A program made the translations under genes and the position numbers. This document shows positions 2,117 to 48,133 of a DNA stretch of 50,763 nt, piece by piece (within the stretch, counting starts at the first letter, position 1; every line of letters begins with the position of its first letter). Origin of the DNA: Atribacterota bacterium. Its GTDB lineage: Bacteria; Atribacterota; Phoenicimicrobiia; Phoenicimicrobiales; Phoenicimicrobiaceae. The notes beneath the pieces were generated by a model, which was given only the letters and a program-made list of their open reading frames with translations, did not search any database and was not told the origin of the DNA. Location: positions 1 to 50,763 of the forward strand of contig JAUWHZ010000015.1 of NCBI GenBank assembly GCA_030605615.1, given 5' to 3'.

Positions 2117-2179
2117 TCGTATATCGCATTTCGTATAAAATACAGCAACAAGTAATATGTAATGAGTAATAAGATTAAA
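2117..2179 (+). repeat. Heptamer array tcgtata tcgcatt tcgtata aaataca gcaacaa gtaatat gtaatga gtaataa gattaaa
   Basis: Seven-nt register read directly. Confidence 0.85.
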
Positions 2180-2201
2180 TTTCTGAAATTACAAAAACAT
2201 G

Positions 2202-2243
2202 TTACTTATTACACATTACTTATTACATGTTACTTATCATTTT
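2202..2243 (-). repeat. Heptamer array ttactta ttacaca ttactta ttacatg ttactta tcatttt (contains the ribF stop)
   Basis: Inverted complement of the GTAATNN units at 2152-2172. Confidence 0.9.
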
Positions 2244-3161
2244 ATGGGCTATTAAAATGTCATTTTCTATCTGTTTCTTTAATAAATTTGGATGGCTAAA
2301 GTACTTTTCATTTCTTATCTTTTGAAGTATGTTAATGCTAACTATTTCGTTATAAATATCTTTACTAAAATCCATAATATGTACTTCTATGGTTCTTTTT
2401 ATTTCTTTAAAAGTAGGTCTAATCCCGATATTTATTAAACCGTAATATTTTTTACTATTAATTACAATTTCTACTAAGTACACCCCATTAGCGGGAATAA
2501 TTTTTTTTAAAGGTGTCTCGATATTAGCTGTAGCATAATTTAATAGTTCTTTGCCTCTACCTTTCCCGGGGATAACTCTTCCTGTAATTGTTATATTATG
2601 ACCCAACATTTTTTTTGCTTTTTTAATATCTCCCAGGCTAATGTATTCTTTTATTTTTGTGCTGCTTATAATAATATTACTTAGAATTTCTGGTTTTAAT
2701 ATATTAGTCTTAAAATTATACATTTTTCCATATTTTTTTAAACAATCTACATTTCCTTTACCCTGAAAACCAAATTTATAATTAAATCCCACGAAAAGTT
2801 CTTTTACTTCTAAACTATCTACTAAAATGTTTCGTATAAAATCTTCAGGTGACATTCTGCTTATCATTTTAGTAAATTTAATAATAAGAAAAATATCTAC
2901 CTTTAAATCTTTAATTAATTCTATCTTTTCTTCCAGAGTGGTTAAAAGAAAAACATCATTTTTAGGGATGATTATTTTGTCAGGATGAGGTTCAAAAGTT
3001 ATAACAATACTTGTTCCATTATTTTTTTTAGCTTTATCAAAAGTTGATTTAATCAACTTTTGATGGCCTAAATGTACACCATCAAAAACACCCAAGGCAA
3101 TATATCGGCCTCTCTCAGGTAGTATTATGTTTTTTGAGAATTTTATAATTTTCATAATCAA
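2223..3161 (-). CDS. ribF: Bifunctional riboflavin kinase/FAD synthetase
   Basis: ALGVFDGVHLGHQKLI; GRVIPGKGRGKELLNYATANI motif. Confidence 0.93.
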   Translation of the reverse strand: MIMKIIKFSKNIILPERGRYIALGVFDGVHLGHQKLIKSTFDKAKKNNGTSIVITFEPHPDKIIIPKNDVFLLTTLEEKIELIKDLKVDIFLIIKFTKMISRMSPEDFIRNILVDSLEVKELFVGFNYKFGFQGKGNVDCLKKYGKMYNFKTNILKPEILSNIIISSTKIKEYISLGDIKKAKKMLGHNITITGRVIPGKGRGKELLNYATANIETPLKKIIPANGVYLVEIVINSKKYYGLINIGIRPTFKEIKRTIEVHIMDFSKDIYNEIVSINILQKIRNEKYFSHPNLLKKQIENDILIAHKMISNM

Positions 3162-3183
3162 TTGTTTAATATTAAATTAACGA

Positions 3184-3939
3184 TTATCTTTTGTGGTCGA
3201 ATTTATTCGACCCGCCTTTTATAGTTATTTTATCTAAATCTTTAAGGGCAGAATCTATGGTAATAAGATATTTTTTACCTAAAGTATTGTCTTTTTTCAA
3301 TTCCTCTAAACTTAAAGAATCTTCGATATTAAAACTACCAATTTTTTTTCTAACTAAATTAGATAAATATGCACCACAACCTAATTCTTCACCTATATCA
3401 TTGCATAATGTTCTAATATAGGTACCTTTTGAACATACAACTTCAAATTCAACAATCGGATTCTTTTTTTGAATAATCTTAATCAGATTTAATTGATATA
3501 TCTTAACTTTTTTAGGATTTCTTTTTACCTCTATGCCTTTTCTGGCTAAATGATATAATCTTTCGCCCTTATAATGAACTGCGGAAAACATCGGGGGTAT
3601 TTGACTAATTGTCCCTTTATATTTCTGGAATATTTTGTTAATCTTTTTTTCGTCAATATCAGTATTAACTTCTTTTCTTTGAATAATTTTTCCTTCCGAG
3701 TCTTGAGTATCGGTGCTTACACCTAAGGTCATTTCACCAAGATAGTGTTTGTTTAATTCCATCATAAATTTTACAATTTTAGTCGCTTGACCAAGACACA
3801 CCAATAAAACACCCGAAGCAGAAGGATCTAATGTCCCCGCATGTCCAGCTTTTTTAATATTTAAAATATTTTTAACTTCTCTTACAACTTTATACGAACT
3901 GATTCCTTTTGGTTTTAGTATGTTTAAAATACCGTTCAT
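3184..3939 (-). CDS. truB: tRNA pseudouridine(55) synthase
   Basis: NGILNILKPKGISSYKVV, GHAGTLDPSASGVLLV. The C-terminal residues are encoded by a palindromic repeat. Confidence 0.95.
   Translation of the reverse strand: MNGILNILKPKGISSYKVVREVKNILNIKKAGHAGTLDPSASGVLLVCLGQATKIVKFMMELNKHYLGEMTLGVSTDTQDSEGKIIQRKEVNTDIDEKKINKIFQKYKGTISQIPPMFSAVHYKGERLYHLARKGIEVKRNPKKVKIYQLNLIKIIQKKNPIVEFEVVCSKGTYIRTLCNDIGEELGCGAYLSNLVRKKIGSFNIEDSLSLEELKKDNTLGKKYLITIDSALKDLDKITIKGGSNKFDHKR
3195..3212. repeat. Palindrome GGTCGAATTTATTCGACC inside the truB 3' end
   Basis: Perfect palindrome related to the copies at 10841 and 21376. Confidence 0.88.
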
Positions 3940-3943
3940 TAAT

Positions 3944-4984
3944 TTATATTAAAAATAATTTATTTTTAATTAAAAGATTCTTACGCATTTTATCTTTAAG
4001 AGAACTAATTTCTTTAAATAATTCGGAAAGAATATTTTCCTTTACTTCTTCCAATTTTCCCGAGCATAAACAGCCCGCTGAGTTTGGATGCCCGCCTCCT
4101 TTAAATTTATCAGCAAATTTACTTACGTTAAAGTTTCCTTTGGAACGAAAACTAACTTTTATTTTATCGTCCTTAGTTTCTCTAAACAAGATTGATATTT
4201 CAGTATTTTTTAATGTTGTGGATACATCAATGATTCCTTCTATTTCTCCATCATCAGCTTTGGTCTCATCTAACATCTTTCTGGTGATAGATAACCATGA
4301 AACATAATTAGAATCATCCATTTTTAATGTTAATAGAGCTTTCCCCAATAATTTTAATCCAGCGATGGTGTTTTTATTATAAATATTTTTAGCAATCAAG
4401 TAGGGTTTCATTCCAGTAAGAGTTAAATCAGAAACTATTCTAAATGTTTTAGAACTAACATTTGAATATCTAAATGAACCTGTATCAGTTATTATAGCTG
4501 CAAATAAACAGGTAGATATTTTTTCATCTAATAAATCTAAGTTAATAAATTTAATCAATTCATAAATAATTTCTCCAACTGAAGAAGTGGAATAGTCTAT
4601 ATAATTTAAATTACCATAGTTTTCATTACTACCATGGTGGTCAATATTTATTATAGTATTTGTATTTTCTAATATGTTAGATATTTCTCCTGCTCTTTTG
4701 ATGTTGCTGCAATCAAGCACTATTCCAACATCAAAATTATTTTTTTTAATATTATTATCTTCTAAATTATGTATTTTATCGCTTTCGGGTAAAAAACCGT
4801 AAATTTCTGGTAATTTATCCTGATTTAATATAATAGACTTCTTATTTAATTTTTTTAGGATAAAATGAAAGGCAAGCTCAGACCCAATAGCATCACCATC
4901 TAAATTTATATGTGAAGTAATTAAAAAATTATTATTCTTTTTTAACACCTTAACGATTTCATTAAATTTATTTATCATTTTCAC
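3944..4984 (-). CDS. nrnA: DHH/DHHA1 phosphoesterase (NrnA-like oligoribonuclease/pAp phosphatase)
   Basis: SHINLDGDAIGSELA, NIDHHGSNENYG, GGGHPNSAGC motifs; typical position between rbfA and truB. Confidence 0.87.
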   Translation of the reverse strand: MKMINKFNEIVKVLKKNNNFLITSHINLDGDAIGSELAFHFILKKLNKKSIILNQDKLPEIYGFLPESDKIHNLEDNNIKKNNFDVGIVLDCSNIKRAGEISNILENTNTIINIDHHGSNENYGNLNYIDYSTSSVGEIIYELIKFINLDLLDEKISTCLFAAIITDTGSFRYSNVSSKTFRIVSDLTLTGMKPYLIAKNIYNKNTIAGLKLLGKALLTLKMDDSNYVSWLSITRKMLDETKADDGEIEGIIDVSTTLKNTEISILFRETKDDKIKVSFRSKGNFNVSKFADKFKGGGHPNSAGCLCSGKLEEVKENILSELFKEISSLKDKMRKNLLIKNKLFLI

Positions 4985-5351
4985 CTTTCTTTTTATTTGA
5001 TTGTTCCTGGTGTATTTCTGAAGCTATCTTTAATAATTTATATTGATACTCCATACTTTCATCAATTTTAAATTTAATTTCTGGTACAAATCTAATTTTT
5101 AATTGTCTTCCAATTTCACCTCTTATAAATTTTGTGGCACTTTTTAACCCTTTTAAACACTTTTTATTATGATCTTCATCACCATAAATACTAACATAAA
5201 TATTAGCATGTTTTAAATCTGAAGAGACTTGTATCCTGGTAATGGTTGTAAAATTTATTCTTGGGTCATTTATCTTTCTATAAATTATATTGTTAATTAC
5301 TTTTTTAAGAGATTTTTCTAATTGTTCAGTTTTTTTAAAAGATGGCAACAT
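4968..5351 (-). CDS. rbfA: 30S ribosome-binding factor A
   Basis: INDPRINFTTITRIQVSSDLKHANIYVSIYG; position. Confidence 0.92.
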   Translation of the reverse strand: MLPSFKKTEQLEKSLKKVINNIIYRKINDPRINFTTITRIQVSSDLKHANIYVSIYGDEDHNKKCLKGLKSATKFIRGEIGRQLKIRFVPEIKFKIDESMEYQYKLLKIASEIHQEQSNKKKGENDK

Positions 5352-5363
5352 GATTGTCTGTAC

Positions 5364-5645
5364 CTAAATAATGGTTATCTCAAATTTTGTTAATTGAAAA
5401 TCATTTTGTTTTTCTAAAAATATAATAATCTTATTTAGAACTTTATTAAGATATTTTTTTTCATTTCCTATGCAAGCAATTCCTAAAGTTGTATTTTTCC
5501 ATAGATCGGAATTATCTATTTCAGAAATTGAAACATTATAACGGTTTCTTATTCGTAATTTAATACTCTTTAGTATATTTCTTTTGTCCTTTAGTGAGTG
5601 GCTATTTGGTAAATACAAATTTATTTTACAAATTCCTATAAGCAT
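5364..5645 (-). CDS. DUF503 family protein
   Basis: CKINLYLPNSHSLKDKRNILKSIKLRIRNRYNVSISEID, typical between infB and rbfA. Confidence 0.88.
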   Translation of the reverse strand: MLIGICKINLYLPNSHSLKDKRNILKSIKLRIRNRYNVSISEIDNSDLWKNTTLGIACIGNEKKYLNKVLNKIIIFLEKQNDFQLTKFEITII

Positions 5646-5678
5646 ATTATTTATATATAAACTTCTTTGTTTTGGTTT

Positions 5679-7613: not shown

Positions 7614-7639
7614 ACATATCGCCTCCATTATAACTTAGA

Positions 7640-7674: not shown

Positions 7675-7723
7675 TGGCAATGACAATATTATACGTACTT
7701 TAGTGAATATTTATAAATTATTT

Positions 7724-10592: not shown

Positions 10593-10631
10593 AAAATAAT
10601 CCTCCTTTTTTGGTATAGCGGGTAACGAATC

Positions 10632-10788
10632 TAGTATATCGTATTTCGTATATCGTATATAGTTAGGAATACAGAAGTCAGAAGCCTAATTCGTATCTCG
10701 TATCTCGTGAATCGTATCTCGTGAATCGTATCTCGTGAATCGTATCTCGTTAAGAGAATAGAAGTCCGAAGACAGAATTCAGAAGACA
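10632..10788 (+). repeat. Long mosaic heptamer array with a 14-nt higher-order repeat (TCGTATC-TCGTGAA)
   Basis: tagtata tcgtatt tcgtata tcgtata tagttag gaataca gaagtca gaagcct (aat) tcgtatc tcgtatc tcgtgaa tcgtatc tcgtgaa tcgtatc tcgtgaa tcgtatc tcgttaa gagaata gaagtcc gaagaca gaattca gaagaca. Confidence 0.92.
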
Positions 10789-10840
10789 AAATAAAAAAAA
10801 CAGAAATGTCATTGCGATAAAGAAATTGCTAAAATGAAAC

Positions 10841-10933: not shown

Positions 10934-10968
10934 TCCTATGCGCTATACGATATACGATATACTAATTA
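10934..10968 (-). repeat. Heptamer array tcctatg cgctata cgatata cgatata ctaatta (contains the dnaJ stop)
   Basis: dnaJ TAG is at 10962-10964. Confidence 0.85.
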
Positions 10969-12107
10969 TTATTTTGACCAAAGGTATTTTTTATTTTATC
11001 AAAAATACCTTTTTCTCCTATGGTATTCAGTTCCTCCCCGCTTAATTTTGCAAATTCTAATAATAATTTTTTTTGCTCATTACTCATTCTTTTGGGAGTT
11101 TCTACTATAATTTTAACATATTCATTCCCTCGTTGATTAGTGCCAATTTTATATATTCCTCTCCCTTTAAGCCTAAATATAGTATTTGACTGTGTTCCGG
11201 CAGGTATTTTTATCTTTGCTTTCTCTTTTAAGGTGGGGACGGTAATTTCACCACCCAAAGCTGCTTTTATAAAACTTATCGAATGATCACTTATAATATC
11301 TATATCTTCACGCTTAAATATTTTGTGAGGTTTCACATATATTACAATAAAAAGGTCACCAGAAGAACCCCCTCTTTCTCCGGGCTCACCCATTCCAGTC
11401 ATTCGTAATCGATGCCCAGTGTCTACACCGGCAGGTATTTTTACTTTTACTATTCTATTCTTTTTGACTTTTCCAGTACCTTTACAATTAGTACAAATAT
11501 TTGTAATTATTTTCCCTTCTCCTCCACATCTGGGACAGGTTTGGATGTTTACGAATTGACCGAATAGGGTACTTTGAGTATTTCTTATTTCTCCAGTACC
11601 ATTGCAATCTGGACAAGTTTGGGGTGAGCTTCCGGGTTCAGCTCTACTACCCTTACATCTGGGACAGGTTTCCCAATGAGGGACTTCAATTCTTGTCTCT
11701 TTTCCAAAAGCAGCATCTTCAAAGTTTATCTCTAAATTATATCTTAAATTAGATCCTCTCTGAGGACGCACTCTATCTTCGCGCCTTCTTGTTCTGGTTC
11801 CAAAAAAAGAATCAAATATATCACTAAAATCACCAAAGTCAGAAAAACCTCTTCCCTGAAAATCACGAAAATCAAATCCTCCAAAACCCTCTGCAGAACC
11901 AAACTGATCGTATCGCGCTCTCTTTTCTTTGTCACCAAGAACTTGATAAGCTTCATTAATTTCTTTAAATTTTTTTTCAGCATTGCTATCGGAAGAGTTT
12001 CTATCCGGATGATATTTAAGGGCAAGTTTTCTATAAGCTTTTTTTATCTCCTCAGTGGTAGCATTTTTATTTAGACCTAAAATCTCATAATAATCTCTTT
12101 TTGGCAA
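10962..12107 (-). CDS. dnaJ: Chaperone DnaJ
   Basis: [34 protein letters not shown]; four CxxCxGxG-type repeats. Confidence 0.98.
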
Positions 12108-12172: not shown

Positions 12173-12227
12173 TATCTTTTTTCTATCCACTTCGTCATCA
12201 TTCGGGTTTATAAATCGAATTTACTTA

Positions 12228-12246
12228 GACAGGCGAGACGCCTGTC
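12228..12246. repeat. REP-like hairpin GACAGGCG-AGA-CGCCTGTC + CTAC
   Basis: Same stem as the RAYT-flanking copies. Confidence 0.92.
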
Positions 12247-12271
12247 CTACGGTTTTATTTATATTATTGGG

Positions 12272-12315: not shown

Positions 12316-12371
12316 TACTATATACTACATACTACATACTATATACTAAAATGCTAACGACTAATCTATCA
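12316..12371 (-). repeat. Heptamer array tactata tactaca tactaca tactata tactaaa atgctaa cgactaa tctatca (ends at the dnaK stop)
   Basis: dnaK TGA is at 12369-12371. Confidence 0.88.
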
Positions 12372-20703: not shown

Positions 20704-20745
20704 TAACTTGATACTCGATACTTGATACTCGATACTGATTAGGCT
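20704..20745 (+). repeat. Heptamer array taacttg atactcg atacttg atactcg atactga ttaggct
   Basis: Between divergent murJ and rpsT, immediately upstream of the candidate rpsT -35. Confidence 0.85.
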
Positions 20746-20810: not shown

Positions 20811-21362
20811 ATGCCAAGATTAAAATCTGCAATAAAAAGAGTTAAAACCTCTAAGAAAAGTCATTTAAGGAATATTTCATATAGATCAAAAATAAAGACC
20901 AATATTAAAAAATACGATGTTGCCTTATCTGAAAAAAATGAAAATGAGGCCATCAAATATTTTAAGGATTCTGTTTCAATTTTAGATAAAGCTGTAAACA
21001 AAGGTATTCTTGCTAAAGGTACCGTTTCTCGTAAAAAATCGAGATTAGCTAAAAAATTAAATGTTTTAATAAAACCTATACAGCCGTCTGAAATTCAAAA
21101 AACAATAAAAATTGAGAAAAAACCAAAAGTTAAAAAAACAGTAAAAGCTGTAAAGAAAACAGAAACTAAGAAAATTTTAAAAACTACCAAAAAACCTAAA
21201 ACTAAAAAAACAGCAATCTCTAAGAAAAAACCAGTAATTAAAAAGGCATCAAAAACTACTAAAAAAACAGAAACTAAGAAAACAACAAAATCTACTGAAA
21301 AAACAGTAGATAAAAAAACTACAAAACCAGCAAAGAAAACAGAAACTAAAAAAAGTAAATGA
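20811..21362 (+). CDS. rpsT: 30S ribosomal protein S20 with a long Lys/Thr-rich C-terminal extension
   Basis: MPRLKSAIKRVKTSKKSHLRNISYRSKIKTNIKKY...KGTVSRKKSRLAKKLN is S20; residues ~88-183 are low-complexity K/T with repeated KKTETKK. Confidence 0.93.
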   Translation: MPRLKSAIKRVKTSKKSHLRNISYRSKIKTNIKKYDVALSEKNENEAIKYFKDSVSILDKAVNKGILAKGTVSRKKSRLAKKLNVLIKPIQPSEIQKTIKIEKKPKVKKTVKAVKKTETKKILKTTKKPKTKKTAISKKKPVIKKASKTTKKTETKKTTKSTEKTVDKKTTKPAKKTETKKSK

Positions 21363-21403: not shown

Positions 21404-21426
21404 AGGACAGGCGAGACGCCTGTCCT
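21404..21426. repeat. REP-like hairpin AGGACAGGCG-AGA-CGCCTGTCCT + AC
   Basis: 10-bp perfect stem; reads CGCCTGTC-CTAC. Confidence 0.92.
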
Positions 21427-21451
21427 ACCTATTTATGATTAATTGTTGTAG

Positions 21452-21502: not shown

Positions 21503-21505
21503 CTA

Positions 21506-21617
21506 CACATCACTCATCACATATTACTATTTTCTTCTGACTTCTGGCTTCTGGCTTCTGACTCCCTCTTTCCTAACTCTACGCTCTACGCTAACTAAAC
21601 ACTATTCACTAACGACT
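21506..21617 (-). repeat. 16-unit mosaic heptamer array (includes the holA stop)
   Basis: cacatca ctcatca catatta ctatttt cttctga cttctgg cttctgg cttctga ctccctc tttccta actctac gctctac gctaact aaacact attcact aacgact; holA TAG is at 21609-21611. Confidence 0.85.
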
Positions 21618-22640
21618 ATTTTTCTGATTTATAATATTCATAACTAATTCTTCTAAAATAATTTGAGGATTTTTCTGGCTATCTTTCAGTTCTAAATCTG
21701 CGACATTTAGTAATTTATAAGATTGGCAAAGTTCTTTAACAGTATATTTTTTCGATTGTTTTATCATTTTTTCAATAATAAAATAAGGTAATTTTAATTC
21801 GTTCTTTATTTGATTAAAATCTGCGCCGTTTATAAGTAATAATTTTGTTTGCAGTATAAGTCTTATTTGCCGATAAATCATAGCAAATATGGATAAATAA
21901 TGGAGATTGCTTTTGTCTAATTTAATTAAGCCATCTATCGCATTTTTCAACTCTTTCTTTCCTATAGAATCTAAAACATTGAATATATTAATAGATTCTG
22001 AACCGCCTATAGCCATCATAATATCTTCTTTTTCTATTATATTTTTATCTTTCGTATAAATATCTATTTTTTCTATTTCAATAAAAAGACGTCTTACATC
22101 AGAACCAATCATAGATTGCAGGTAGAATGATGCTTCAGGAGTTATTTTTTTATTACTTTGTTGGAATTTAGATCTTATCCATATAGTTAATTTCGATTTA
22201 TCCGGAATATTGAAATTAACTGCCATTCCTATTCTTTTTATTGCTTTACTTAATTCTTTATGTGGAGTCTTTTCTTTATATACTATTATTAGTGTTGAAA
22301 AATAATTTTTAAAATTATGGTTATTAAGATAATTTATTAATCTATCCATTTCTTCTTTAGAGATTTTTTCTGCTTCTTTTATTACTACTAACTTATATTT
22401 AGATATAAAGGGTAATGTTTCTACCTCATTTATTATTTCACCTATTAATGTCTTTTCACCATAAAATACTTTATAATTTAATTCTCTGTAGTTGGAATCA
22501 ATCAATTTGTTTTTAAATTTATTTAGAATATTATCTTTTAAATAATTTTCATTTCCAAAAAATAGATAAACGGAAAAGATTTTTTCTTTCTTTACATGAT
22601 CTAATATTCTTTCATAACTTAAATTATTTTCTTGTTTCAT
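21609..22640 (-). CDS. holA: DNA polymerase III subunit delta
   Basis: FFGNENYLKDNILNKFK; adjacent to comEC and convergent with rpsT, as is common. Confidence 0.9.
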   Translation of the reverse strand: MKQENNLSYERILDHVKKEKIFSVYLFFGNENYLKDNILNKFKNKLIDSNYRELNYKVFYGEKTLIGEIINEVETLPFISKYKLVVIKEAEKISKEEMDRLINYLNNHNFKNYFSTLIIVYKEKTPHKELSKAIKRIGMAVNFNIPDKSKLTIWIRSKFQQSNKKITPEASFYLQSMIGSDVRRLFIEIEKIDIYTKDKNIIEKEDIMMAIGGSESINIFNVLDSIGKKELKNAIDGLIKLDKSNLHYLSIFAMIYRQIRLILQTKLLLINGADFNQIKNELKLPYFIIEKMIKQSKKYTVKELCQSYKLLNVADLELKDSQKNPQIILEELVMNIINQKNSR

Positions 22641-30969: not shown

Positions 30970-33318
30970 TTAAAAAGGACATCGGGTAAGGGCTGCTTTT
31001 AGAACATCGTCTATATTGTTTACCGAGATAAATTTTAAACTTTTTTTAATATCATTAGGCAGGTTATCTATGTTTTTAATATTATCTTGAGGAATAATTA
31101 TTGTTTTAATACCCGACTGATAAGCAGCGAGTATTTTTTCTTTTAAACCTCCCACTGGCAAAACCCTTCCTCTTAAAGTAATCTCACCGGTCATTGCTAC
31201 ATCTTTTCGAACTGGAATTTTAGTAAGGGAAGAAATCAAAGAAGTAGCCATAGTTATACCTGCTGATGGACCATCTTTAGGTATAGCACCTTCCGGAATA
31301 TGAACATGGATATCATAATTTTCATAAAATTTATCTTTTATCTTAAACTTTGCTGCCCGAGAACGAGCATAGGTTAAAGCAGCTTTCCCTGACTCCTGCA
31401 TTATTTCTCCCAATTGACCTGTAAGAGTCAACTTACCCTTTCCAGGCATTACTATAGTCTCAACTGCTAATATTTCACCACCTGCCTCGGTCCAAGCTAA
31501 ACCTGTTGCTAAACCTATCATATCTTCTTTTTCGACATTATCGGTTTTAAATTTCGGTATACCTAAATAATTCTCTAAATTTTTTAAAGTTATTTTTACT
31601 CCTTTTTTCTTTTTAGAATAAGCAATTTTTAAGGCAACTTTTCTACATATAGAAGCAATCTCTTTTTCTAAGCCTCGTACTCCTGCTTCATGAGTATATT
31701 CTCTAATTACTTTTTTAATGGCTTTTTCTGATATCTCTATATCCCTTTCTTGAAAGCCATGATTATTTAATTGTTTGGGAAGTAAAAATAACTGACCAAT
31801 TTTTAATTTTTCATAATCTGTATATCCGGGAATATTAATTATTTCCATTCTATCCCTGAGGGAGTAAGGTATTTCATCTTCAATATTTGCAGTAGTAATA
31901 AACATTACTTCAGAAAGGTTGAAAGGCACTTCAAGATAATGATCTCTAAAAGTGTTATTTTGTTCCGGATCTAACACCTCTAAAAGTGCAGCAGCAGGAT
32001 CACCTCTGAAATCCACACTCATTTTATCAATTTCATCTAATAGAAAAACCGGGTTTTTAGATTTTGCATTAATTATCCCCTGTATAATTCTTCCTGGCAT
32101 TGAACCTATATAAGTTTTTCTATGTCCACGTATTTCTGCTTCATCCCGAACACCACCCAAAGAAACTCTTATAAAGTTTCTACCCATTGCTCGAGCCACT
32201 GATTTTACCAGGGATGTCTTACCTACTCCGGGAGGACCCACCAAACAAAGAATTACTCCCTTTTGTTTATTGCTTAATTTTCTTACCGCTAAGTATTCTA
32301 AAATTCTTTCTTTAATATCTATTAAGCCATAATGGTCTTCATCTAATATCCTTTTAACTAATTCTATATCCAATTTTTCTTTTGTCTTTTTATTCCAGGG
32401 AAGAGATAAAATCCATTCTAAATAATTTACTATTACTCCACTTTCTGCAGACAGTATTGGGATTTTTTCTAAACGGGTTATTTCTTTTAGGAATTTTTCT
32501 TTCAGTTCTTTATTTAATTTTAACGATATTATCTTTTCTTTGAACTCCTCAACTTCAGTAATATTTTTTTCATTGTTCCCCAATTCTTTTTGTATTTCTT
32601 TTAGTTGTTCTTTCAAGTAATAATCTTTCTGAAATTTCTCTAATGTTCCCTCTACTCTACTCTGTATTTTTTGCTCTATTTTTAAAATAGTTATCTCTCT
32701 TTTTAATATACTAATCAATTTTTTTAATCTTGTTGACTGATCGTATATTTCTAACAAATCCTGTTTATCTTTTACTTTTAAAATTAAATTAGAAGCAACT
32801 ATGTCAGCCAACTTATCAGGTTTTTCAACATTTCCAATTGAAAATATTATTTCAGAAGGTAATTTATTGTTTAATTTTAAATATTGCTCAAATCTACTGA
32901 TAGTTAATCTCATTAAAGCTTCTATTTCTAAATTTTTTACAGGTTTAGCTTTAATTTTTTTTATTTTTATCTTAAGAAAATTATTTTTCTCTTCTATATC
33001 AGTGATTTCCGCTCTACTAAGTCCTTCTACTAAAACTTTAACTGTATCATCAGGCAGTTTGTATATTTGTATTATTTTGGCAATTGTTCCTACAGAATAA
33101 AGATCTTCTAAGTCAGGTTTTTCTAATTCAGGATCTCTCTGAGAAACTATGAAAATTTGACTATTTAACTTTACTGCTTCTTCTAAAGCATTAATAGATT
33201 GTTCCCTTCCCACAAACAAAGGGATGACCATGTAAGGAAAAACCACTAAATCCCTTAGTGGTAATAAAGGTAAAACATTTTTATCACGATAGTTTATTTT
33301 TTTATTTTGATTATTCAT
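30970..33318 (-). CDS. lon: ATP-dependent protease La (Lon)
   Basis: [48 protein letters not shown]. Confidence 0.98.
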
Positions 33319-33344
33319 ATAGAATATTAAATCTCCCTTTTTTA

Positions 33345-33372
33345 TCGTATGTCGTATGTCGTATGTCGTTAA
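33345..33372 (+). repeat. Heptamer array (TCGTATG)3-TCGTTAA
   Basis: Tandem 7-nt units; contains the stop codon of the four-helix-bundle gene. Confidence 0.9.
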
Positions 33373-33728
33373 AGCTTTTTGATTAGACTTGAAGTCATTC
33401 TACCAATATGATCCAATTTTTCAATCAGTTCTGTTTCTTCATTTTCATTTATATATTTTAATTTTTTTGCAATAATTATTTGCGTTTCTAGCTCAGCACA
33501 ACTTCCTAAAGTTATATATAAAAACTGTTTATATTCTTTATTGTGATACCTCTTAAATCCTTCAGCTATATTGGAAGGTATGGAAATTGCAGAACGTCTT
33601 AATTGTGAAGTTAAACTAAATAATTCTTCTTTAGGAAATTTCTTAGTTAAAATATAGATATCACTAACAATTTCTATTCCCTTTTGCCAAATCCTTAAAT
33701 CTTTAAAGCTTTTTATTTTCTCTTCCAT
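33369..33728 (-). CDS. Four-helix-bundle protein of the 23S rRNA intervening-sequence (S23/IVP, Avd-like) family
   Basis: SFKDLRIWQKGIEIVSDIYILTKKFPKEELFSLTSQLRRSAISIPSNIAEGFKRYHNKEYKQFLYITLGSCAELETQIIIAKKLKYI is the characteristic family signature. Confidence 0.92.
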   Translation of the reverse strand: MEEKIKSFKDLRIWQKGIEIVSDIYILTKKFPKEELFSLTSQLRRSAISIPSNIAEGFKRYHNKEYKQFLYITLGSCAELETQIIIAKKLKYINENEETELIEKLDHIGRMTSSLIKKL

Positions 33729-33740
33729 TTTTCCTCAATT

Positions 33741-33768
33741 CGATATACGATATACTCGACTATATGCT
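33741..33768 (-). repeat. Heptamer array, 5' side of the four-helix-bundle gene
   Basis: cgatata cgatata ctcgact atatgct. Confidence 0.75.
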
Positions 33769-33800
33769 ATTTATCCCTTTAATTATATCTTTATCTTAAT

Positions 33801-33835
33801 ACGATATACGAAATACGATATACGATATACTACTT
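33801..33835 (-). repeat. Heptamer array abutting the clpP stop codon
   Basis: acgatat acgaaat acgatat acgatat actactt; clpP TAG is at 33830-33832. Confidence 0.88.
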
Positions 33836-34429
33836 CTTAATTGCTTCGTCTCGACGTTTAATTACTTCATCAACTATTCCATAATCCTTAGATTCCTGAG
33901 CAGTTAAATAAAAATCTCTATCCGTATCTTTTTCAACCTTCTCTAATGGTTGGCCAGTATGATAAGTTAATATCTTATTAATGGTATCCTTAATTCTTTT
34001 AAGTTCCTTAGTTTGTATCTCTATATCTGAAACCTGACCCCGTGCCCCACCTAAAGGTTGATGAAGCATAATTCTTGAATTAGGTAGAGCAAATCTTTTT
34101 TCTTTTGCGCCTGAAGCCAATATCAAAGCAGCACCACTCGCTGCCATACCGACACATATAGTAGAAACATCAGCTCTGATATATTGAACTGTATCGTATA
34201 TAGCGATTGTTGAACTAACTGACCCTCCAGGGCTGTTTATATAAATATAAATATCCCTATCAGGATCGCTTGCTTCTAAAAATAGCAACTGAGCTATGAT
34301 AGTATTAGCTGTTGTGTCATCTATTTCTGTCCCTAAAAATATTATTCTATCTTTTAATAAACGGGAATAAATATCATATGATCTTTCTCCACGGGGAGTT
34401 TGTTCTACTACGATAGGTATTAAAGTCAT
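33830..34429 (-). CDS. clpP: ATP-dependent Clp protease proteolytic subunit
   Basis: [49 protein letters not shown]. Confidence 0.98.
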
Positions 34430-37836: not shown

Positions 37837-37871
37837 TAGTATATCGTATATCGTATTTCGTATTTCGCCAG
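37837..37871 (+). repeat. Heptamer array TAGTATA TCGTATA TCGTATT TCGTATT TCGCCAG
   Basis: Uninterrupted 7-nt register; complementary to the array ending at 38017. Confidence 0.9.
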
Positions 37872-37933: not shown

Positions 37934-38020
37934 TGCTATATGCTACATACTATATGCTAATCTATCTTCTGACTTCTTTCTTCTTAACCATATACGATAT
38001 ACGATATACGATATACGATC
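37934..38020 (-). repeat. Heptamer array (tgctata/tgctaca... to (atatacg)4) downstream of ispA
   Basis: Register read by eye; (atatacg)4 is at 37990-38017. Confidence 0.85.
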
Positions 38021-41850: not shown

Positions 41851-43077
41851 TTATACAAATTTTTTACAAAAGCTTTTCACTTCTTTTCTTACTTCTTCTT
41901 TTATCTTCTGATCTTCTATATTATTTAGGACTCGACTAATCATCTCCGCTATAATTCCCATTTCCTTTTCTTTCATCCCGCGGGTAGTAACTGCAGGAGT
42001 TCCGATTCTTATTCCGCTGGCAACCCAAGGCTTTTGAGGGTCAAAGGGAACCATATTCTTATTAACAGTAATTCCGGCTTCTTCCAAAGCTTTCTCTGCC
42101 TGCTTTCCGGTAATTCCTTTATTTATCAAATCAACTAACATCAAGTGATTATCAGTTCCACCGGATACTAAATTATAACCTAATTCTATTAATTTATCAG
42201 CTAAGGCTTTGGCATTTTTAATGATTTGCTTCTGATATTCTTTAAACTCTGCAGTCATTGCCTGTTTAAAACAGACTGCCTTAGCAGCAATTACATGCAT
42301 TAATGGCCCACCTTGAATCCCCGGGAATATAGTTTTATCAATTATACGTGCATACTCTTCTTTACATAAAATTAATCCACCTCGTGGTCCCCTTAAAGTT
42401 TTGTGAGTAGTAGAAGTGACAAAATGGCAATAAGGCACAGGACTTTGGTGAAGATCTGCTATAACCAACCCGGCAATATGGGCAATATCAGCCATTATGT
42501 ATGCCCCTACTTCATCAGCAATATCTCTAAAAGCAGAAAAATCTATTTCTCTCGGATAAGCACTTGCCCCGGCAATAATTAACTTAGGTTTATGTTCTAA
42601 AGCAAGATCTCTTAAATTATCATAATCAATTCTACCTGTATCTTTTCCTACACCATAAGGAATAATATTAAAATATTTACCAGAAAAATTTACCGGGCTG
42701 CCATGGGTTAGATGACCTCCATGAGAGAGGTTCATAGCCAGAATTGTATCTCCCATATCTAAAACACCAAAATAGACCGCCATATTAGCTTGTGAACCAC
42801 AATGTGGTTGAACATTAGCATGGTCAGCCTTAAATATTTCTTTTGCTCTTTCAATGGCTAAATTTTCTACTACATCGATATATTTGCATCCACCATAATA
42901 TTTTTTACCGGGATATCCTTCCGCATATTTATTGGTTAAGACTGATCCCTGGGCTTCTAATACGGCGGGAGAAACAAAATTCTCTGAGGCAATTAATTCT
43001 ATAGTATATTTCTGGCGATTTTCTTCATTTTTTATAGCTTCAAAAATTTCAGCATCAACTTCCTTCAAATTACTCAT
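41851..43077 (-). CDS. glyA: Serine hydroxymethyltransferase
   Basis: [54 protein letters not shown]. Confidence 0.98.
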
Positions 43078-43159
43078 CTTTTCCTCCTTTTAAAATAATT
43101 AACTTATCAAATTTTTTTCTAGTATCTTCGTTATTCATTTATTTTCCGTAAATAAGTAG

Positions 43160-43178
43160 GACAGGCGTCTCGCCTGTC
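43160..43178. repeat. REP-like hairpin GACAGGCG-TCT-CGCCTGTC with 5' GTAG foot (left of RAYT)
   Basis: gtagGACAGGCGTCTCGCCTGTC; overlaps the RAYT stop codon. Confidence 0.9.
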
Positions 43179-43705
43179 TACGAATTATCATTTATCCAAC
43201 CTTTTACATATAACCACTTATAGTCTATATAACTTTTTGACAAATTCGCTTTTATAGGATTATTTGCAATATATTTAATTTTTTCTATAAATTCTTTTTC
43301 ATTTCTTATTACTTTATCATAATTCTCATCTTGCCAAAATTTACCTTTTCTGTTAGTTTTCTTATTAATTTCATGAGCTGTAAAACTCTTAATACTATGC
43401 ATTATCTTGGATAATTTATCCATAGGATTTATTATCATGTGGATATGATCATTTAATACTACTACAGAATAAAGTTCGTATTTTTTACCATCTAAAAAAT
43501 GAATAGCATTAAAAATACAATTTTTTTGTGATGGTTGTAGTTTTATTCTTTTATATGTCGTAAAAGTAATAAAATAATAACCTGCCTGAATTTGGAAATG
43601 CGGAAGATGACGTCTCCATAAATCTTCTGACAGGCGAGACGCCTGTCCTACGTTGTGGTTGTAATTTTGGTTATTTCTTGTTAACAAATTTTCATTCATC
43701 ATCAC
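43178..43705 (-). mobile_element. RAYT (REP-associated tyrosine transposase, IS200-like TnpA_REP)
   Basis: HUH motif in VVVLNDHIHMIINPMD; catalytic Tyr region EKIKYIANNPIKANL; N-terminal VGQASRLS is translated REP. The first residues of the ORF may not be native. Confidence 0.92.
43629..43647. repeat. REP-like hairpin GACAGGCG-AGA-CGCCTGTC followed by CTAC (right of RAYT, inside its ORF)
   Basis: Inverted relative to the copy at 43160. Confidence 0.9.
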
Positions 43706-43781
43706 AACACTCCAGGTTTAATATATTTTAACTCCCTGCATTACACCTAATTATTTTAAAATACTCTGTTCATCTACATTT

Positions 43782-44888
43782 TTAAAGATTAAGGATTTTA
43801 GGAAACCAGGTTAACATTTCATATCCCTCATCAGTAATTAAAACTGAATCTTCAATCCTGACTCCACCAGTCTCAGGTAGATATATCCCCGGTTCAATAG
43901 TTATCACCATTCCAGGCAAAAGAACGGTTTCGTCACTAAAAGAAACTCGAGGTAATTCATGAATATCCAAACCTACCCCATGGCCTAAGCTATGTCCAAA
44001 ATATTTTCCATAACCTTTTTTCTCAATTAAATTTCGAGCAACAGAATCTACTTCTTTACATTTTATCCCTGGTTTTAAAAATTCGAGGGCTTTTCCCTGG
44101 GCTTCTAAAACAATAGAAAATATCTCTTTTTGTTTTTTATTTTCCTTGCCTAAAACTATAGTTCGAGTTATATCAGAATTATAGTTCTGATAATTTGCTC
44201 CCACATCAATAATTATCAGTTCACCTTCAGCGATCTTTTTTTCAGAAGGTTTCCCGTGAACTAAAGAAGATCTTTCTCCTGAAACAACAATTATATCAAA
44301 AGCCTCTTTCTGGGCACCTTTCTTCCTCATAGTATAAGATAACTCTGTAGCGATATCAAGTTCTCTTATGCCTGGTTTAATTATCTCAATTGCTTCTTTT
44401 AAAGCCTCAGTAGTTATCTGGGAAGCTTTCTTTATTTTAATAATTTCTTCTTTTTCCTTAATCATTCTTATCTGTTCAATGACATCTTCGAAAGGCACAA
44501 ATTCTACAGATTCAAAACTATCAGAATATTTCTTAAAATCATTATAGTTCAAATGACTGCTTTCAAAAGCTATCTTCTTTAACTTCTTTTTCTTTATTAT
44601 TTTATTTAATTCTTCTATTCGGGCATTTTTTTGTTTTAATTTCTCAGTTATAATTTTAAAATCAGGGCTTTCTTTCTGAGCCTGTTCGGTATAACGTGAA
44701 TCAGTAATTAAAAAATTATCTCCCTTAGTAATTAAAGCTAATCCTTCTCCATTAAAACCAGATAAATAAGTTAAGTTTTTATAGTTAAAAACTAAAAACC
44801 CTTCAATATCTTTATTTTTTTTAAATATATTTCCTCTAAATATTTTTAATCTATCTTTAATCAAAACTACCCCTCCTAAATTTTTCAA
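43782..44888 (-). CDS. pepP: M24 family Xaa-Pro aminopeptidase
   Basis: GELIIIDVGANYQNYNSDITRTIVLG; GHSLGHGVGLDIHELPR; TIEPGIYLP. Confidence 0.92.
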   Translation of the reverse strand: MKNLGGVVLIKDRLKIFRGNIFKKNKDIEGFLVFNYKNLTYLSGFNGEGLALITKGDNFLITDSRYTEQAQKESPDFKIITEKLKQKNARIEELNKIIKKKKLKKIAFESSHLNYNDFKKYSDSFESVEFVPFEDVIEQIRMIKEKEEIIKIKKASQITTEALKEAIEIIKPGIRELDIATELSYTMRKKGAQKEAFDIIVVSGERSSLVHGKPSEKKIAEGELIIIDVGANYQNYNSDITRTIVLGKENKKQKEIFSIVLEAQGKALEFLKPGIKCKEVDSVARNLIEKKGYGKYFGHSLGHGVGLDIHELPRVSFSDETVLLPGMVITIEPGIYLPETGGVRIEDSVLITDEGYEMLTWFPKILNL

Positions 44889-45375
44889 TTATTTTCTGGT
44901 TTATTTCTTCTATAGATAAATCGGTAATATCGATTATATAATCAGCTGCCGGAAAACTTGGAGTTTTTAAATTTAAAATACCTTTTGCAGATTCAAATAA
45001 CTGATCCCATTGACTCATTAAACGAGATTTTTCGTCTTTAATTTTATTTATTTTTAAATTTATTTTACTGGTAATTAAACTAATCAATAAACCATTTCGC
45101 TTTAGAGCTTTTACATTTCTTCCTCTTAATATACTCCCACCACCAACAACAATTACTGTGTTAGTGGCATTTGATATTTTTTCTATTATCTCGTTTTCTA
45201 AAGAGCGAAAATATTTTTCTCCATACTTTTTAAATAATTCAGAGAGACCTAATCCACTTTCTCTTTTCATCATCTCATTAGTGTCTATAAACTTCATCTT
45301 TAATTTTAAAGCTAAGTCTTTTCCTATTTCTGACTTATTTGTCCCCTCTAATCCGACTAAAATTATATTTTTCAT
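44857..45375 (-). CDS. aroK: Shikimate kinase
   Basis: IILVGLEGTNKSEIGKDLALKLKMKFIDTNEMM; VVGGGSILR. The P-loop is GLEGTNKS, slightly atypical. Confidence 0.82.
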   Translation of the reverse strand: MKNIILVGLEGTNKSEIGKDLALKLKMKFIDTNEMMKRESGLGLSELFKKYGEKYFRSLENEIIEKISNATNTVIVVGGGSILRGRNVKALKRNGLLISLITSKINLKINKIKDEKSRLMSQWDQLFESAKGILNLKTPSFPAADYIIDITDLSIEEINQKIIEKFRRGSFD

Positions 45376-46715
45376 AATTTTTTGATTTCACCTACTAAAT
45401 CATATTCAGAAGTTTCTATAATATTTACTTTTATAAACTCCCCAATCCAAGCTTTATCTGTTTTTATGATCACCTTGCCATCTATCTCGGGGGCATCGGC
45501 TTGAGTGCGGCCAATGGCTAACTTTGACTTGCCTGAAGATATCTCATTAACCAATACTTCTACTTCTTTTCCCAGGTAAGAACAATTTATTTCTTTAGAA
45601 ATTTTCTGTTGAGTCACCATTAGTTTTTCCAAACGTTCCTTCTTTATCCGCAAAGGTATTTGCTGGGGAAAGTTATAGGCTGGAGTTCCTTCTTCTTTAG
45701 AAAAAACAAATGCCCCTAACTTTTCAAATCTTACTTCTTTCACAAAATTCAACAATTCTTCAAAATCTTGATCGGTTTCACCAGGAAATCCTACCATAAA
45801 AGTTGTGCGTAAAGTTAAATTTGGGATTTTATCTCTTAATTTTTTTATCAGCGAAATAATATATTTTTTTTCAATCGGTCTATTCATCTTTTTTAATATT
45901 TTATCACTTATATGTTGTAAAGGTAAATCCAGATAAGGGCATATCTTGGGATAATTGGCTATCACTTCGATTAAATTATCATTATAATGAAGAGGATGGG
46001 TATATAAAAGTCTAATCCATTTTAGATTTTTTAATTCAAGGAGAGAAAGTTTTTTTAGCAATTCAGCCAATTTATATTCTCCATAAAGATCAATTCCATA
46101 CAAAGTAGTATCTTGACCAATTAAAATTATCTCAGAAAGATTTTGTTTTTCAGAAAGCATTTTTACTTCTTCAATTATATCTTCCATCTTTCTACTACGA
46201 TAACTTCCTCTTATTTTAGGAATCAGACAATATGAACAATTATTCTGGCAACCTTCTGATATTTTAATATAGGCGTAGTGTTGGGGGGTTAAAACAGTTC
46301 GAGGGGTAATATAATTATAAAGAAAATCAGGTTTATGGTTTACCTGGAAGATTTGTTCACCTTGCAAAACTTTTTCTATTATCTCATCAATCTCTAATAA
46401 ATCTCCGACTCCCAAAAAAGCATCAACTTCTGGAAGTTCTTGACTAAGATTATTATCTTTATATCTCTGAGGAAGGCACCCGGCTACTATTAAATACTTT
46501 ATTTTGCCCTCTTTTTTTAATTTTACTGCAGAAAAAATCTCTTCAATTGATTCTTCTACTGCATCTCTTATAAAACTGCAGGTATTTATAATTACTAAAT
46601 CCGAATTATTAATTTGTCCGCTTATCTTGTGCCCTTTTTCTTCTAATTTCCCGCAAATTACTTCAGTATCAACTAAATTTTTAGGACATCCTAAAGATTT
46701 AATACCAATTCGCAT
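45372..46715 (-). CDS. rimO: Ribosomal protein S12 methylthiotransferase RimO
   Basis: IGIKSLGCPKNLVDTEVICGKLEEKGH; ISEGCQNNCSYCLIPKIRGSYRSR. Confidence 0.96.
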   Translation of the reverse strand: MRIGIKSLGCPKNLVDTEVICGKLEEKGHKISGQINNSDLVIINTCSFIRDAVEESIEEIFSAVKLKKEGKIKYLIVAGCLPQRYKDNNLSQELPEVDAFLGVGDLLEIDEIIEKVLQGEQIFQVNHKPDFLYNYITPRTVLTPQHYAYIKISEGCQNNCSYCLIPKIRGSYRSRKMEDIIEEVKMLSEKQNLSEIILIGQDTTLYGIDLYGEYKLAELLKKLSLLELKNLKWIRLLYTHPLHYNDNLIEVIANYPKICPYLDLPLQHISDKILKKMNRPIEKKYIISLIKKLRDKIPNLTLRTTFMVGFPGETDQDFEELLNFVKEVRFEKLGAFVFSKEEGTPAYNFPQQIPLRIKKERLEKLMVTQQKISKEINCSYLGKEVEVLVNEISSGKSKLAIGRTQADAPEIDGKVIIKTDKAWIGEFIKVNIIETSEYDLVGEIKKL

Positions 46716-46746
46716 AGTATATGAAATTTCTTCTTCCTTTCATAAT

Positions 46747-46767
46747 ATAGCACACAGCGTATAGTGT
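46747..46767 (+). repeat. Short heptamer array atagcac acagcgt atagtgt
   Basis: Upstream of rimO; weak on its own but similar to the array at 48085. Confidence 0.5.
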
Positions 46768-46778
46768 TTATATTATCT

Positions 46779-47123
46779 TTAACGAAAAAATCTATATTTT
46801 TGCTTATTTTCTATATCGATTGCTTTTACGTGCCCCTCTACAACTTCAGGTGGGCTCAACTTAACTAAACCAATTAAACACAAAATTCCAATGATAATAT
46901 CTTCAAAAAACCCTAAAAACGGAACTAAAAAATCAGGTATTAAATCATAAGGCGATAATACATATGCAATTGCTCCATATACTAATAATTTCAAATAAAA
47001 AGGTACTCTCTTGTCTTTGAGCAATCTTAAAGATAATTTTATAAAATTAGGTATATGAAAAATTATCCTGGCAAAGTATAATTGTCTTTTTAATTTACCA
47101 TAAGGATCTTTATTATTAGACAT
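46779..47123 (-). CDS. DUF1232 (YkvA-type) small membrane protein
   Basis: VPFYLKLLVYGAIAYVLSPYDLIPDFLVPFLGFFEDIIIG. Confidence 0.88.
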   Translation of the reverse strand: MSNNKDPYGKLKRQLYFARIIFHIPNFIKLSLRLLKDKRVPFYLKLLVYGAIAYVLSPYDLIPDFLVPFLGFFEDIIIGILCLIGLVKLSPPEVVEGHVKAIDIENKQKYRFFR

Positions 47124-47237
47124 AATTTATCTCTCAAAAAGTAAAAATAATCAATAAATTAAATAAAAATGAACCCATTACTTTGTTTTGATGAAAGTTT
47201 TTTAACGAGAAAAATTATAAAAAGTAAATATTTTTTT

Positions 47238-47942
47238 CTAACTCTTTAAGGTGTATGCAGTAATCAAATCTTTTTTGCCTTTTATCTTTAATTTACGCGG
47301 ATAAGTAAATTTAAAATTGGCTTTAATCTTTTGATAGGTTCTTTCGCCAATCATAATTTCTCCTGATGGAGCATTAACCTGTAAACGGGAAGATAAATTA
47401 ACGGTATCGCCGATAACAGTAAATTCTTTCCTTAATGGTGAACCAATTTCGCCTGAAATACATAAACCCGTATTTATTCCAATACTCGCTTTTAATTTCA
47501 TTTTTTTATTATCTATCTCTATTTCACCATTTCTTTCGATAGATTCCATTATCTCCATACTTGTTCTAATTGCTCTCTCCGGGTCATTTTCGTGAGAATA
47601 AGGTGTCCCAAAGACTATCATTAAGCCATCACCCAAAAATTTATTTATTGAGCCTTCGTATTTATAGATAATATTGATAATTGGTTGAAATATACGATTT
47701 AAAATATCAGTAGCTTCTTCGGGGTCTAAACGTTCAGCAAGATGGGTAAAATCTTTTATGTCCAAAAATATTACTGTAACTTCTCTTCTTTCACTGGGTA
47801 AGCTGGACTTTCCTTCTAATATTCTGGAAGTTACTGCCTTAGGGACATATGGTTTAAACAATTCTAATATTTTATTTTGCATCTTTTTCTGTGCGTTTTC
47901 TTTATCCATTTTTAAAAACACCTTTCGGGCGGATAAATCCAC
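47238..47942 (-). CDS. Class III adenylate/guanylate cyclase catalytic-domain protein
   Basis: VTVIFLDIKDFTHLAERLDPEEATDILNRIFQPI...NKFLGDGLMIVFGTPYSHENDPERAIRTSMEI; IGDTVNLSSRLQ. Confidence 0.93.
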   Translation of the reverse strand: MDLSARKVFLKMDKENAQKKMQNKILELFKPYVPKAVTSRILEGKSSLPSERREVTVIFLDIKDFTHLAERLDPEEATDILNRIFQPIINIIYKYEGSINKFLGDGLMIVFGTPYSHENDPERAIRTSMEIMESIERNGEIEIDNKKMKLKASIGINTGLCISGEIGSPLRKEFTVIGDTVNLSSRLQVNAPSGEIMIGERTYQKIKANFKFTYPRKLKIKGKKDLITAYTLKS

Positions 47943-47979
47943 TCCCTTGTAAATTTAAAAATATATAATCATTGTTCCC

Positions 47980-48014
47980 TCTCCCCTCGGTGGGAGAGGG
48001 TTAGGGTGAGGGGG
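47980..48014. repeat. CCCTCTCCC-type intergenic repeat (ccctctcccctcggtgggagagggttagggtgagg)
   Basis: Hairpin CCCTCTCCC...GGGAGAGGG followed by TTAGGGTGAGG. Confidence 0.8.
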
Positions 48015-48084
48015 AATTTGATTTTTATTTTGTGATTTTTAATATTATAACAAAAGCAGGAAAATAAATAAAGAATAAAAAACC

Positions 48085-48133
48085 AGCGGATAGCGCACAG
48101 CGTGTAGCGTATAGAAAAAATAGTATATAGTAA
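48085..48133 (+). repeat. Heptamer array agcggat agcgcac agcgtgt agcgtat agaaaaa atagtat atagtaa
   Basis: 7-nt register read directly. Confidence 0.85.

What the first reader, a model, noticed from the sequence alone, without database searches (positions are those of the whole stretch)
2117..48133. A dispersed family of heptanucleotide-phased intergenic arrays with drifting units and a largely fixed 7-nt register
At least 13 intergenic arrays share one property: a 7-nt period. They are at 2117-2179, 2202-2243, 10632-10788, 10934-10968, 12316-12371, 20704-20745, 21506-21617, 33345-33372, 33741-33768, 33801-33835, 37837-37871, 37934-38020 and 48085-48133, with a weak one at 46747-46767. Units differ widely (TCGTATA, TCGTATG, TCGTGAA, GAAGTCA, CTTCTGG, TACTACA, ATACTCG, GTAATGA, AGCGTGT). 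They switch inside one array, mostly without losing register; one break is visible at ~10688. Replication slippage makes identical units and does not explain register kept across unit changes. That suggests a heptamer-templated or heptamer-reading process, or selection on spacing (3 units = 21 bp, about two helical turns). The closest named precedent I know is the heptanucleotide STRR sequences of heterocystous cyanobacteria, which are more uniform.
Basis: seen in the sequence. Interest (0 to 1): 0.86.

Follow-up and report, generated by a model that had tools for sequence, protein, structure and literature searches.

The report
Heptad arrays are hairpin-element arms
The scattered 7-letter repeats are real and are the matching arms of hairpin-shaped genetic elements that, in complete form, carry the small protein gene known from insertions in bacterial ribosomal RNA; this link recurs in many bacterial phyla and may explain why 7-letter repeats are so common in bacteria.

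Summary
The arrays are real. Lag-7 autocorrelation in the intergenic DNA of this Atribacterota genome is z=26.7 against dinucleotide shuffles, and there are about 100 arrays in 624 kb. (1) Arrays have strand polarity. Going left to right, intergenic regions read L...L R...R, where R units are reverse complements of L units: 41 L-to-R transitions against 1 R-to-L, with neighbouring L and R of the same unit class twice as often as chance. They are the two arms of quasi-palindromes. (2) Three listed arrays (33345, 33741, 33801) are the arms of one element with an IVP gene (PF05635, 23S rRNA intervening-sequence protein) in its loop. IVP genes across the order, in other phyla and on cyanobacterial plasmids sit between inverted, matched heptad arrays. 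Matched arms flank 17/29, 18/30 and 8/14 IVP genes, against 1/507 control genes, almost only at lag 7. Arm unit class tracks IVP clade. A real 23S rRNA IVS (Azospirillum) has the same heptad arms. Orthologous sites show full, solo-array and empty states. Register across unit-class changes is not kept beyond chance. Mobility and RNase III processing are inferred.

The parts
33369..33728 (-). IVP gene (23S rRNA intervening-sequence protein / four-helix-bundle protein, 119 aa), the ORF in the loop of the complete element
   Evidence: PF05635 E=4.7e-41; TIGR02436 and, weakly, DGR Avd NF033474 1.1e-9; PDB 2gsc 4.9e-22
33797..33835 (-). Outer 5' arm of the IVP element; on the minus strand it reads GTATATCGTATATCGTATTTCGTATATCGTAT and begins at the clpP stop codon
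33736..33768 (-). Inner 5' array of the IVP element (minus strand GTATATCGTATATCGAAT)
33345..33372 (-). 3' arm of the IVP element (minus strand ACGACATACGACATACGACATACGA), complementary to the 5' arm; MFE fold pairs them as runs of 6 bp plus one mismatch per heptad
37837..37871 (.). L arm (CGTATAT/CGTATTT) of an ORF-less quasi-palindrome
   Evidence: paired in the fold with 37990-38019
37987..38020 (.). R arm (ATATACG) of the same quasi-palindrome, 128 nt from the L arm; R-type ACTATAT/ATGCTAC units at 37934-37970
2117..2179 (.). L array (CGTAT then AGTAATA/TGTAATG units), copy of a dispersed ~60-nt composite module found at many loci of the family
   Evidence: 84% match of window 2117-2179 to the G007 locus
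2197..2243 (.). R array (ATTACTT/ATTACAC), inverted partner of 2117-2179, loop about 32 nt
10629..10806 (.). L arrays: CGTATAT (10629-10663), GAAGTCA class (10667-10689), TCGTATC/TCGTGAA (10691-10750), GAAGTCA class (10761-10806)
10936..10974 (.). R array (ATACGAT), partner of the CGTAT L arrays, at the boundary of the dnaJ gene
12316..12371 (.). Solo R array (ATACTAC/ATACTAT)
20704..20745 (.). Solo R array (ACTTGAT/ACTCGAT)
21505..21618 (.). Composite R arrays: ATCAC, CTTCTGA/CTTCTGG, CTCTACG, ACTATTC/ACTAACG; runs into the stop codon of the 21609-22640 gene
48085..48133 (.). Solo L array (TAGCGTA class)
46747..46767 (.). Weak L-type array (TAGCACA CAGCGTA TAGTG)
   Evidence: below the score cut

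Best explanation
The heptad arrays are the arms of hairpin-forming elements of the 23S rRNA intervening-sequence (IVS) type that have colonised intergenic DNA. A complete element is: 5' arm of tandem heptads (unit [A/C]GTNNNN on the coding strand) - IVP gene - 3' arm of reverse-complementary heptads of the same class. Transcribed with the neighbouring genes, the arms pair into a long stem with the IVP ORF in the loop, as in rRNA IVSs. Most arrays in the window are ORF-less pairs or single arms left by deletion or short-form copying. Arms lengthen and shorten by 7-nt slippage and drift by substitution. Each IVP subfamily keeps its own arm class, so the protein (a homopentamer in its solved Xanthomonas relative, and an Avd relative) probably recognises its own heptad arms. 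Shown here: periodicity, polarity, matched arms, IVP flanking in many lineages, class-clade correlation, full/solo/empty states at orthologous sites, and the same anatomy in one rRNA IVS. Inferred: transcription, RNase III cleavage, protein-arm recognition, and the route of spread.
For: Lag-7 excess. Polarity: L-to-R 41 vs R-to-L 1 in the order, same class 21/41 vs 9.7 expected, p<2e-4. IVP flanks: lag-7 arrays on both sides with a shared inverted 9-mer in 17/29 (Atribacterota), 18/30 (other phyla), 3/30 (Bacteroidota) and 8/14 (plasmids of isolates), against 1/507 (G000), 2/73 (array-rich G007) and 0/38 (Nostoc plasmid) control genes; other lags 0-1. 38 of 48 two-armed IVPs share an inverted 9-mer, 3.3 when partners are shuffled. 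Arm duplex mean -32 vs -12 kcal/mol for swapped partners. IVP identity vs arm similarity: Mantel r=0.44, Atribacterota 0.56, p=0.0005; paralogues in one genome rho=0.79, p=3e-5, with a sharp step near 70% identity. clpP-clpX site: L-IVP-R in G000/G007/G008, R array alone with the same flank in G006, empty in G005; near-empty G000 sites opposite IVP elements. Azospirillum IVP lies inside LSU rRNA (RF02541, 1123 bits) with arms GAGGACG/GATGACA and CTGTCTTCTGTCATCCG. A published Coxiella IVS has three to four tandem GACAGAT heptamers before its S23p ORF and a 28-bp stem cut by RNase III (PMC4990558).
Against: Arrays far outnumber IVP genes (about 100 vs 1 in G000). G006 has 105 ATACGAN hits and no IVP found. 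Five array-bearing genomes in other phyla, including a Vibrio and a Paraglaciecola, have no PF05635 match. 65 of 88 G000 regions have arrays of one orientation only. Two-sided matched arms are rarer in Bacteroidota (3/30). Stand-alone ATACGAN arrays outside Atribacterota show no gene-boundary polarity. The fold of the whole window element is not better than shuffles (z=-0.99). The 'other phyla' IVPs come from genomes picked for ATACGAN arrays (their arms are mostly other units; the Bacteroidota and plasmid sets were not so picked).
Confidence: 0.8

Rival explanations
1. Ordinary heptanucleotide simple-sequence repeats: DNA polymerase favours 7-nt slippage, point mutation makes the units drift, and nothing else is going on.
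For: Heptamers are the commonest long SSRs in many bacteria and a polymerase-footprint cause has been proposed (Mrazek et al. 2007 as described in PMC4679880 and PMC4692102). The window genome and G007 show the 7-nt excess without needing a protein. Slippage surely acts inside the arms.
Against: It does not predict L/R polarity, matched inverted partners, IVP-specific flanking, or arm class following IVP clade.
Confidence: 0.1
2. Binding sites of a transcriptional or translational regulator placed at gene boundaries, as proposed for TAACTGA repeats in Beggiatoaceae and for MTYCTGA heptads in Geobacter.
For: Arrays abut stop codons and ribosome-binding sites; Beggiatoa repeats lie just before start codons (PMC4679880). 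Geobacter class-3 sites are five tandem heptads, most of its predicted site classes being paired (PMC2700814).
Against: Rapid turnover at orthologous sites, from empty to several arrays, next to housekeeping genes of many kinds. Polarity and arms matched around IVP genes are not predicted.
Confidence: 0.15
3. Non-autonomous elements moved by REP-associated tyrosine transposases (RAYTs), the arrays being REP-like ends.
For: RAYT genes in the window (43178-43705) and in nearly all genomes of the order; GTAG-type palindromes sit inside L...R regions.
Against: Arms track IVP clade. G006 and G018 have many arrays and no Y1 match. REP palindromes and heptads are separable.
Confidence: 0.1
4. Assembly or binning artefact.
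For: The genome is a 66%-complete assembly.
Against: Same arrays and anatomy in independent species and in closed plasmids of isolates.
Confidence: 0.01

Closest known systems
23S rRNA intervening sequences (IVS) with S23p/IVP ORF (Leptospira, Coxiella, many Alphaproteobacteria)
   Same: Inverted arms forming a long stem, IVP ORF in the loop; heptad arms found here in the Azospirillum IVS and published as GACAGAT repeats in Coxiella
   Different: Here the elements lie between protein genes, are multicopy (up to 11 per genome), have many ORF-less or single-arm forms, and arm class follows IVP clade
Heptanucleotide STRR/LSSR of cyanobacteria, Xanthomonas (GGGAATC) and Nostoc (GGGGAYT)
   Same: Intergenic, 7-nt period, units with fixed and variable positions (GGGANTN in Xanthomonas)
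   Different: Described mainly as repeats, without general polarity, partner arms or a linked gene (some inverted pairs are noted in Xanthomonas); here those are the defining features
TAACTGA repeats of Beggiatoaceae (MacGregor 2015)
   Same: Intergenic heptads at gene boundaries, scattered across phyla with no known vehicle; the reverse complement TCAGTTA fits [A/C]GTNNNN
   Different: Uniform unit, mostly upstream of start codons, no IVP link reported
Cyanobacterial trnL intron P6b stem-loop
   Same: A hairpin built from heptads TDNGATT or NNTGAGT, swapped as a whole between lineages (PMC4476775)
   Different: Inside a group I intron, no ORF
Avd of diversity-generating retroelements
   Same: Homologous protein family (NF033474 1e-9)
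   Different: Score below the Avd cut-off; no reverse transcriptase or variable repeat seen next to the element

Membership tests
IVS-type element (23S rRNA intervening sequence) | IVP/S23p ORF | tested here: met
   PF05635 4.7e-41 for window 33369-33728
IVS-type element (23S rRNA intervening sequence) | Terminal complementary arms forming a stem | tested here: met
   Matched arms in 46 of 103 IVP loci (17/29, 18/30, 3/30, 8/14); stem pairs in the window element
IVS-type element (23S rRNA intervening sequence) | Located inside 23S rRNA | tested here: not met
   Window element lies between clpP and lon; one related element (Azospirillum) is in LSU rRNA. So: works like an IVS, not filed as an rRNA IVS
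IVS-type element (23S rRNA intervening sequence) | Excised from the transcript by RNase III | not testable with these tools
   Shown for Coxiella (PMC4990558), inferred here
Heptanucleotide SSR / STRR | Tandem 7-nt units in intergenic DNA | tested here: met
Heptanucleotide SSR / STRR | Copy-number variation in 7-nt steps between close relatives | tested here: inconclusive
   Arm lengths differ between species at the clpP site; no strain-level data
MITE | Terminal inverted repeats with target-site duplication | tested here: inconclusive
   Arms inverted; empty sites at the stop codon (L252 vs G000: aaaTAG.. vs aaaTAA..) but no clear duplication
MITE | Ends shared with an autonomous transposon | tested here: not met
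   The only coding partner found with matching ends is IVP, not a transposase
REP/BIME | GTAG-flanked palindromes with a RAYT | tested here: not met
   Heptad arms lack that form; separate GTAG palindromes and a RAYT are present
Diversity-generating retroelement (Avd) | Avd with reverse transcriptase and template/variable repeats | tested here: not met
   IVP scores 38.5 vs the Avd cut-off of 80; neighbours are clpP and lon/clpX

The most novel reading that the evidence does not exclude
A pan-bacterial class of hairpin elements in which an Avd-like pentameric protein (IVP) reads its own heptad-repeat arms, each protein clade with its own heptad 'word', spreads them through intergenic DNA and rRNA, and is the source of the long-unexplained excess of heptanucleotide repeats in bacteria.
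Probability: 0.45. Interest if true: 0.95.

Novelty: new variant of a known kind. Interest (0 to 1): 0.86.

Why it matters
Two old puzzles meet here: why 7-nt repeats dominate bacterial long SSRs, and what the S23p/IVP proteins and their intervening sequences are. If heptad arrays are IVP-element arms, the first gets a vehicle and the second gets a recognisable substrate. Protein-arm pairs from many phyla then make a recognition code directly testable by binding assays and RNA-seq.

Tried and rejected
Fixed register across unit changes: not above chance. Cross-phylum boundary polarity of stand-alone ATACGAN arrays: none. Genome co-occurrence of IVP and arrays (43/48) set aside as evidence, because 116 of 148 Bacteroidota genomes also have IVP. 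RAYT as the vehicle: weak. Whole-element RNA fold: not significant. Matching of CGTAT subtypes between arms in the same region: only 8 pairs, p=0.065. Literature searches for a published IVP-heptad link found only the Coxiella remark; subscription journals are not covered. Nostoc PCC 7120 plasmid record was not held.
Full report
Setting. The window is contig C12 of a 624-kb, 27-contig, 66%-complete assembly at about 30-33% G+C. A named contig of Candidatus Atribacteria RBG_19FT_COMBO_35_14 is 100% identical to genome G007 of the same family, so the host is an Atribacterota bacterium.

Observation. I pulled all contigs and masked ORFs with a simple longest-ORF rule. Intergenic lag-7 identity is 26.7 s.d. 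above dinucleotide shuffles. Arrays at lag 7 number 86 in intergenic DNA at score >=12, against 0-11 for lags 4-6 and 9-13; lag 8 has a smaller peak of 28. Relatives of the same order share the ATACGAN units: 12 of 13 others in the family, G007 with 167 hits. Sampled stretches of other families of the phylum have no lag-7 arrays.

Register. Substitution inside an array cannot change register, so a fixed register within a unit class is expected. Between neighbouring arrays of different class the core phase is close to uniform (0 in 10 of 46, p=0.11).

Polarity. Printing every region showed the same orientation almost everywhere: TCGTATC, TAGTNNN, AGCGTAT, GAAGTCA and AGTAATN units ('L') to the left, their reverse complements ('R') to the right, whatever the strand of the genes. 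In G000 plus relatives, neighbouring arrays change from L to R 41 times and from R to L once. L and R neighbours are of one class in 21 of 41 cases, against 9.7 expected. Folding shows long stems between them. The arrays are arms of quasi-palindromes.

The gene in the loop. Window ORF 33369-33728 is an IVP, the protein encoded in 23S rRNA intervening sequences (PF05635). The order has 0 to 11 such genes per genome, and most sit between an upstream L array and a downstream R array of the same class, for example CGTATCGCGTATTGCG / CGCAATACGCGATACG, TAGTCGTTAGTGAA / TTCACTAACGACTA, AGTATCGAGTATAT / ATACTCGATACT, GTAATGAGTAAC / ATTACTCATCACT. The same holds in Omnitrophota, Planctomycetota, Chloroflexota, Patescibacteria and Pseudomonadota with other units, including GGGATTA, CGTCCCT, TGGTTCC and AGCTATA. 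It also holds on closed cyanobacterial plasmids.

Statistics. Both flanks with lag-7 arrays sharing an inverted 9-mer: Atribacterota 17/29, other phyla 18/30, Bacteroidota not selected for arrays 3/30 (upstream array in 16/30), plasmids 8/14. Lags 4-6 and 8-10 give 0-1 in each of the three genome sets. Controls: 1/507 genes of G000, 2/73 of the array-rich G007, 0/38 of a Nostoc plasmid. Shuffling partners among 48 two-armed IVPs lowers matches from 38 to 3.3, maximum 10 in 2000 shuffles. True arms pair at -32 kcal/mol, swapped arms at -12. The upstream unit, rotated, reads [A/C]G(T)NNNN: G in 66 of 67, A or C before it in 64, T after it in 53. The rotation was chosen to favour such a match, so this is a description, not a test.

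Arm class follows the protein. IVP identity and arm similarity correlate (Mantel r=0.44 overall, 0.56 in Atribacterota, 0.36 elsewhere, each p=0.0005). Among paralogues within one genome, pairs at >=72% identity have arm cosines 0.47-0.93 and pairs at <=68% have at most 0.16 (rho 0.79, p=3e-5). This is not explained by host relatedness, since both members are in one genome.

History at orthologous sites. Downstream of clpP, G000, G007 and G008 have L-IVP-R. G006 has R-type arrays whose last units and flank into clpX match G007 and G008, but no IVP. G005 has an empty 36-nt gap. G000 has empty or near-empty sites (6-28 nt) opposite several IVP elements of relatives, and at another a lone L array. 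Elements start at the stop codon of the upstream gene; the TAG of the first unit is sometimes the stop codon. Other intergenic regions show equally fast turnover.

Link to rRNA IVSs. The Azospirillum lipoferum copy lies inside large-subunit rRNA (RF02541, 1123 bits) and its arms are heptads GAGGACG GATGACA GAGGACG GAGGACA. Warrier et al. 2016 report three tandem GACAGAT heptamers plus a degenerate one before the S23p ORF of the Coxiella IVS, and a 28-bp stem cut by RNase III (PMC4990558). These units fit the looser pattern [A/C]GNNNNN. Published heptads elsewhere also fit: TAACTGA (reverse complement TCAGTTA), Geobacter MTYCTGA, the trnL-intron class NNTGAGT.

Reading. The heptad arrays are stem arms of IVS-like elements. 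Complete elements carry IVP; ORF-less pairs and single arms are short or decayed forms. IVP's solved relative is described as a homopentamer of four-helix bundles (PMC4990558; PDB 2gsc), and IVP is related to Avd. Own-arm recognition is the simplest cause of the class-clade correlation, but it is inferred. Spread by copying is inferred from dispersed copies and empty sites; the enzyme is unknown.

Limits. Arrays greatly outnumber IVP genes. One array-rich genome, G006, shows none. Some phyla have arrays without IVP. Gene calls are heuristic. The 'other phyla' IVPs come from genomes chosen for ATACGAN arrays. No transcript data were available.

Noticed in passing
window 43178-43705 (-): REP-associated tyrosine transposase (NF047646 2.3e-29); four Y1 transposases in the assembly. 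GTAG-type palindromes (GACAGGCGAGACGCCTGTC and others) are common between genes.
   Followed up: partly
window 12226-12250 and 21408-21430; many loci: Palindrome ACAGGCGAGACGCCTGTCCTAC recurs, often directly next to TAGTCGTTAGT arrays, as if inserted at one fixed point of the array.
   Followed up: no
assembly-wide (lag 8); L246, L356, L359:16463-16849: A second array type with an 8-nt period (ACTGGTAA, GCAGAGGA) exists, and some IVP genes seem to have octad instead of heptad arms.
   Followed up: partly
L347, L352: On Pseudanabaena and Anabaena plasmids an IVP gene with flanking heptad arrays sits between cas6 and cas4 of a CRISPR operon.
   Followed up: no
window 20811-21362 (+): Ribosomal protein S20 (Pfam match residues 4-84) has a roughly 100-residue tail encoded by imperfect 18/36/72-nt tandem repeats.
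   Followed up: no
window 30970-34429: Order is lon - IVP - clpP with no clpX between them, whereas relatives have clpX there; clpX may be elsewhere or missing from the bin.
   Followed up: no
L093, L098, L101, L115: Vibrio, Paraglaciecola and Cellvibrionaceae carry near-perfect ATACGAG arrays; V. chagasii, Paraglaciecola and the Cellvibrionaceae have no PF05635 match, so heptads can exist without this protein family.
   Followed up: partly
window 48185-48991 (-): 268-aa ORF without a Pfam match.
   Followed up: no
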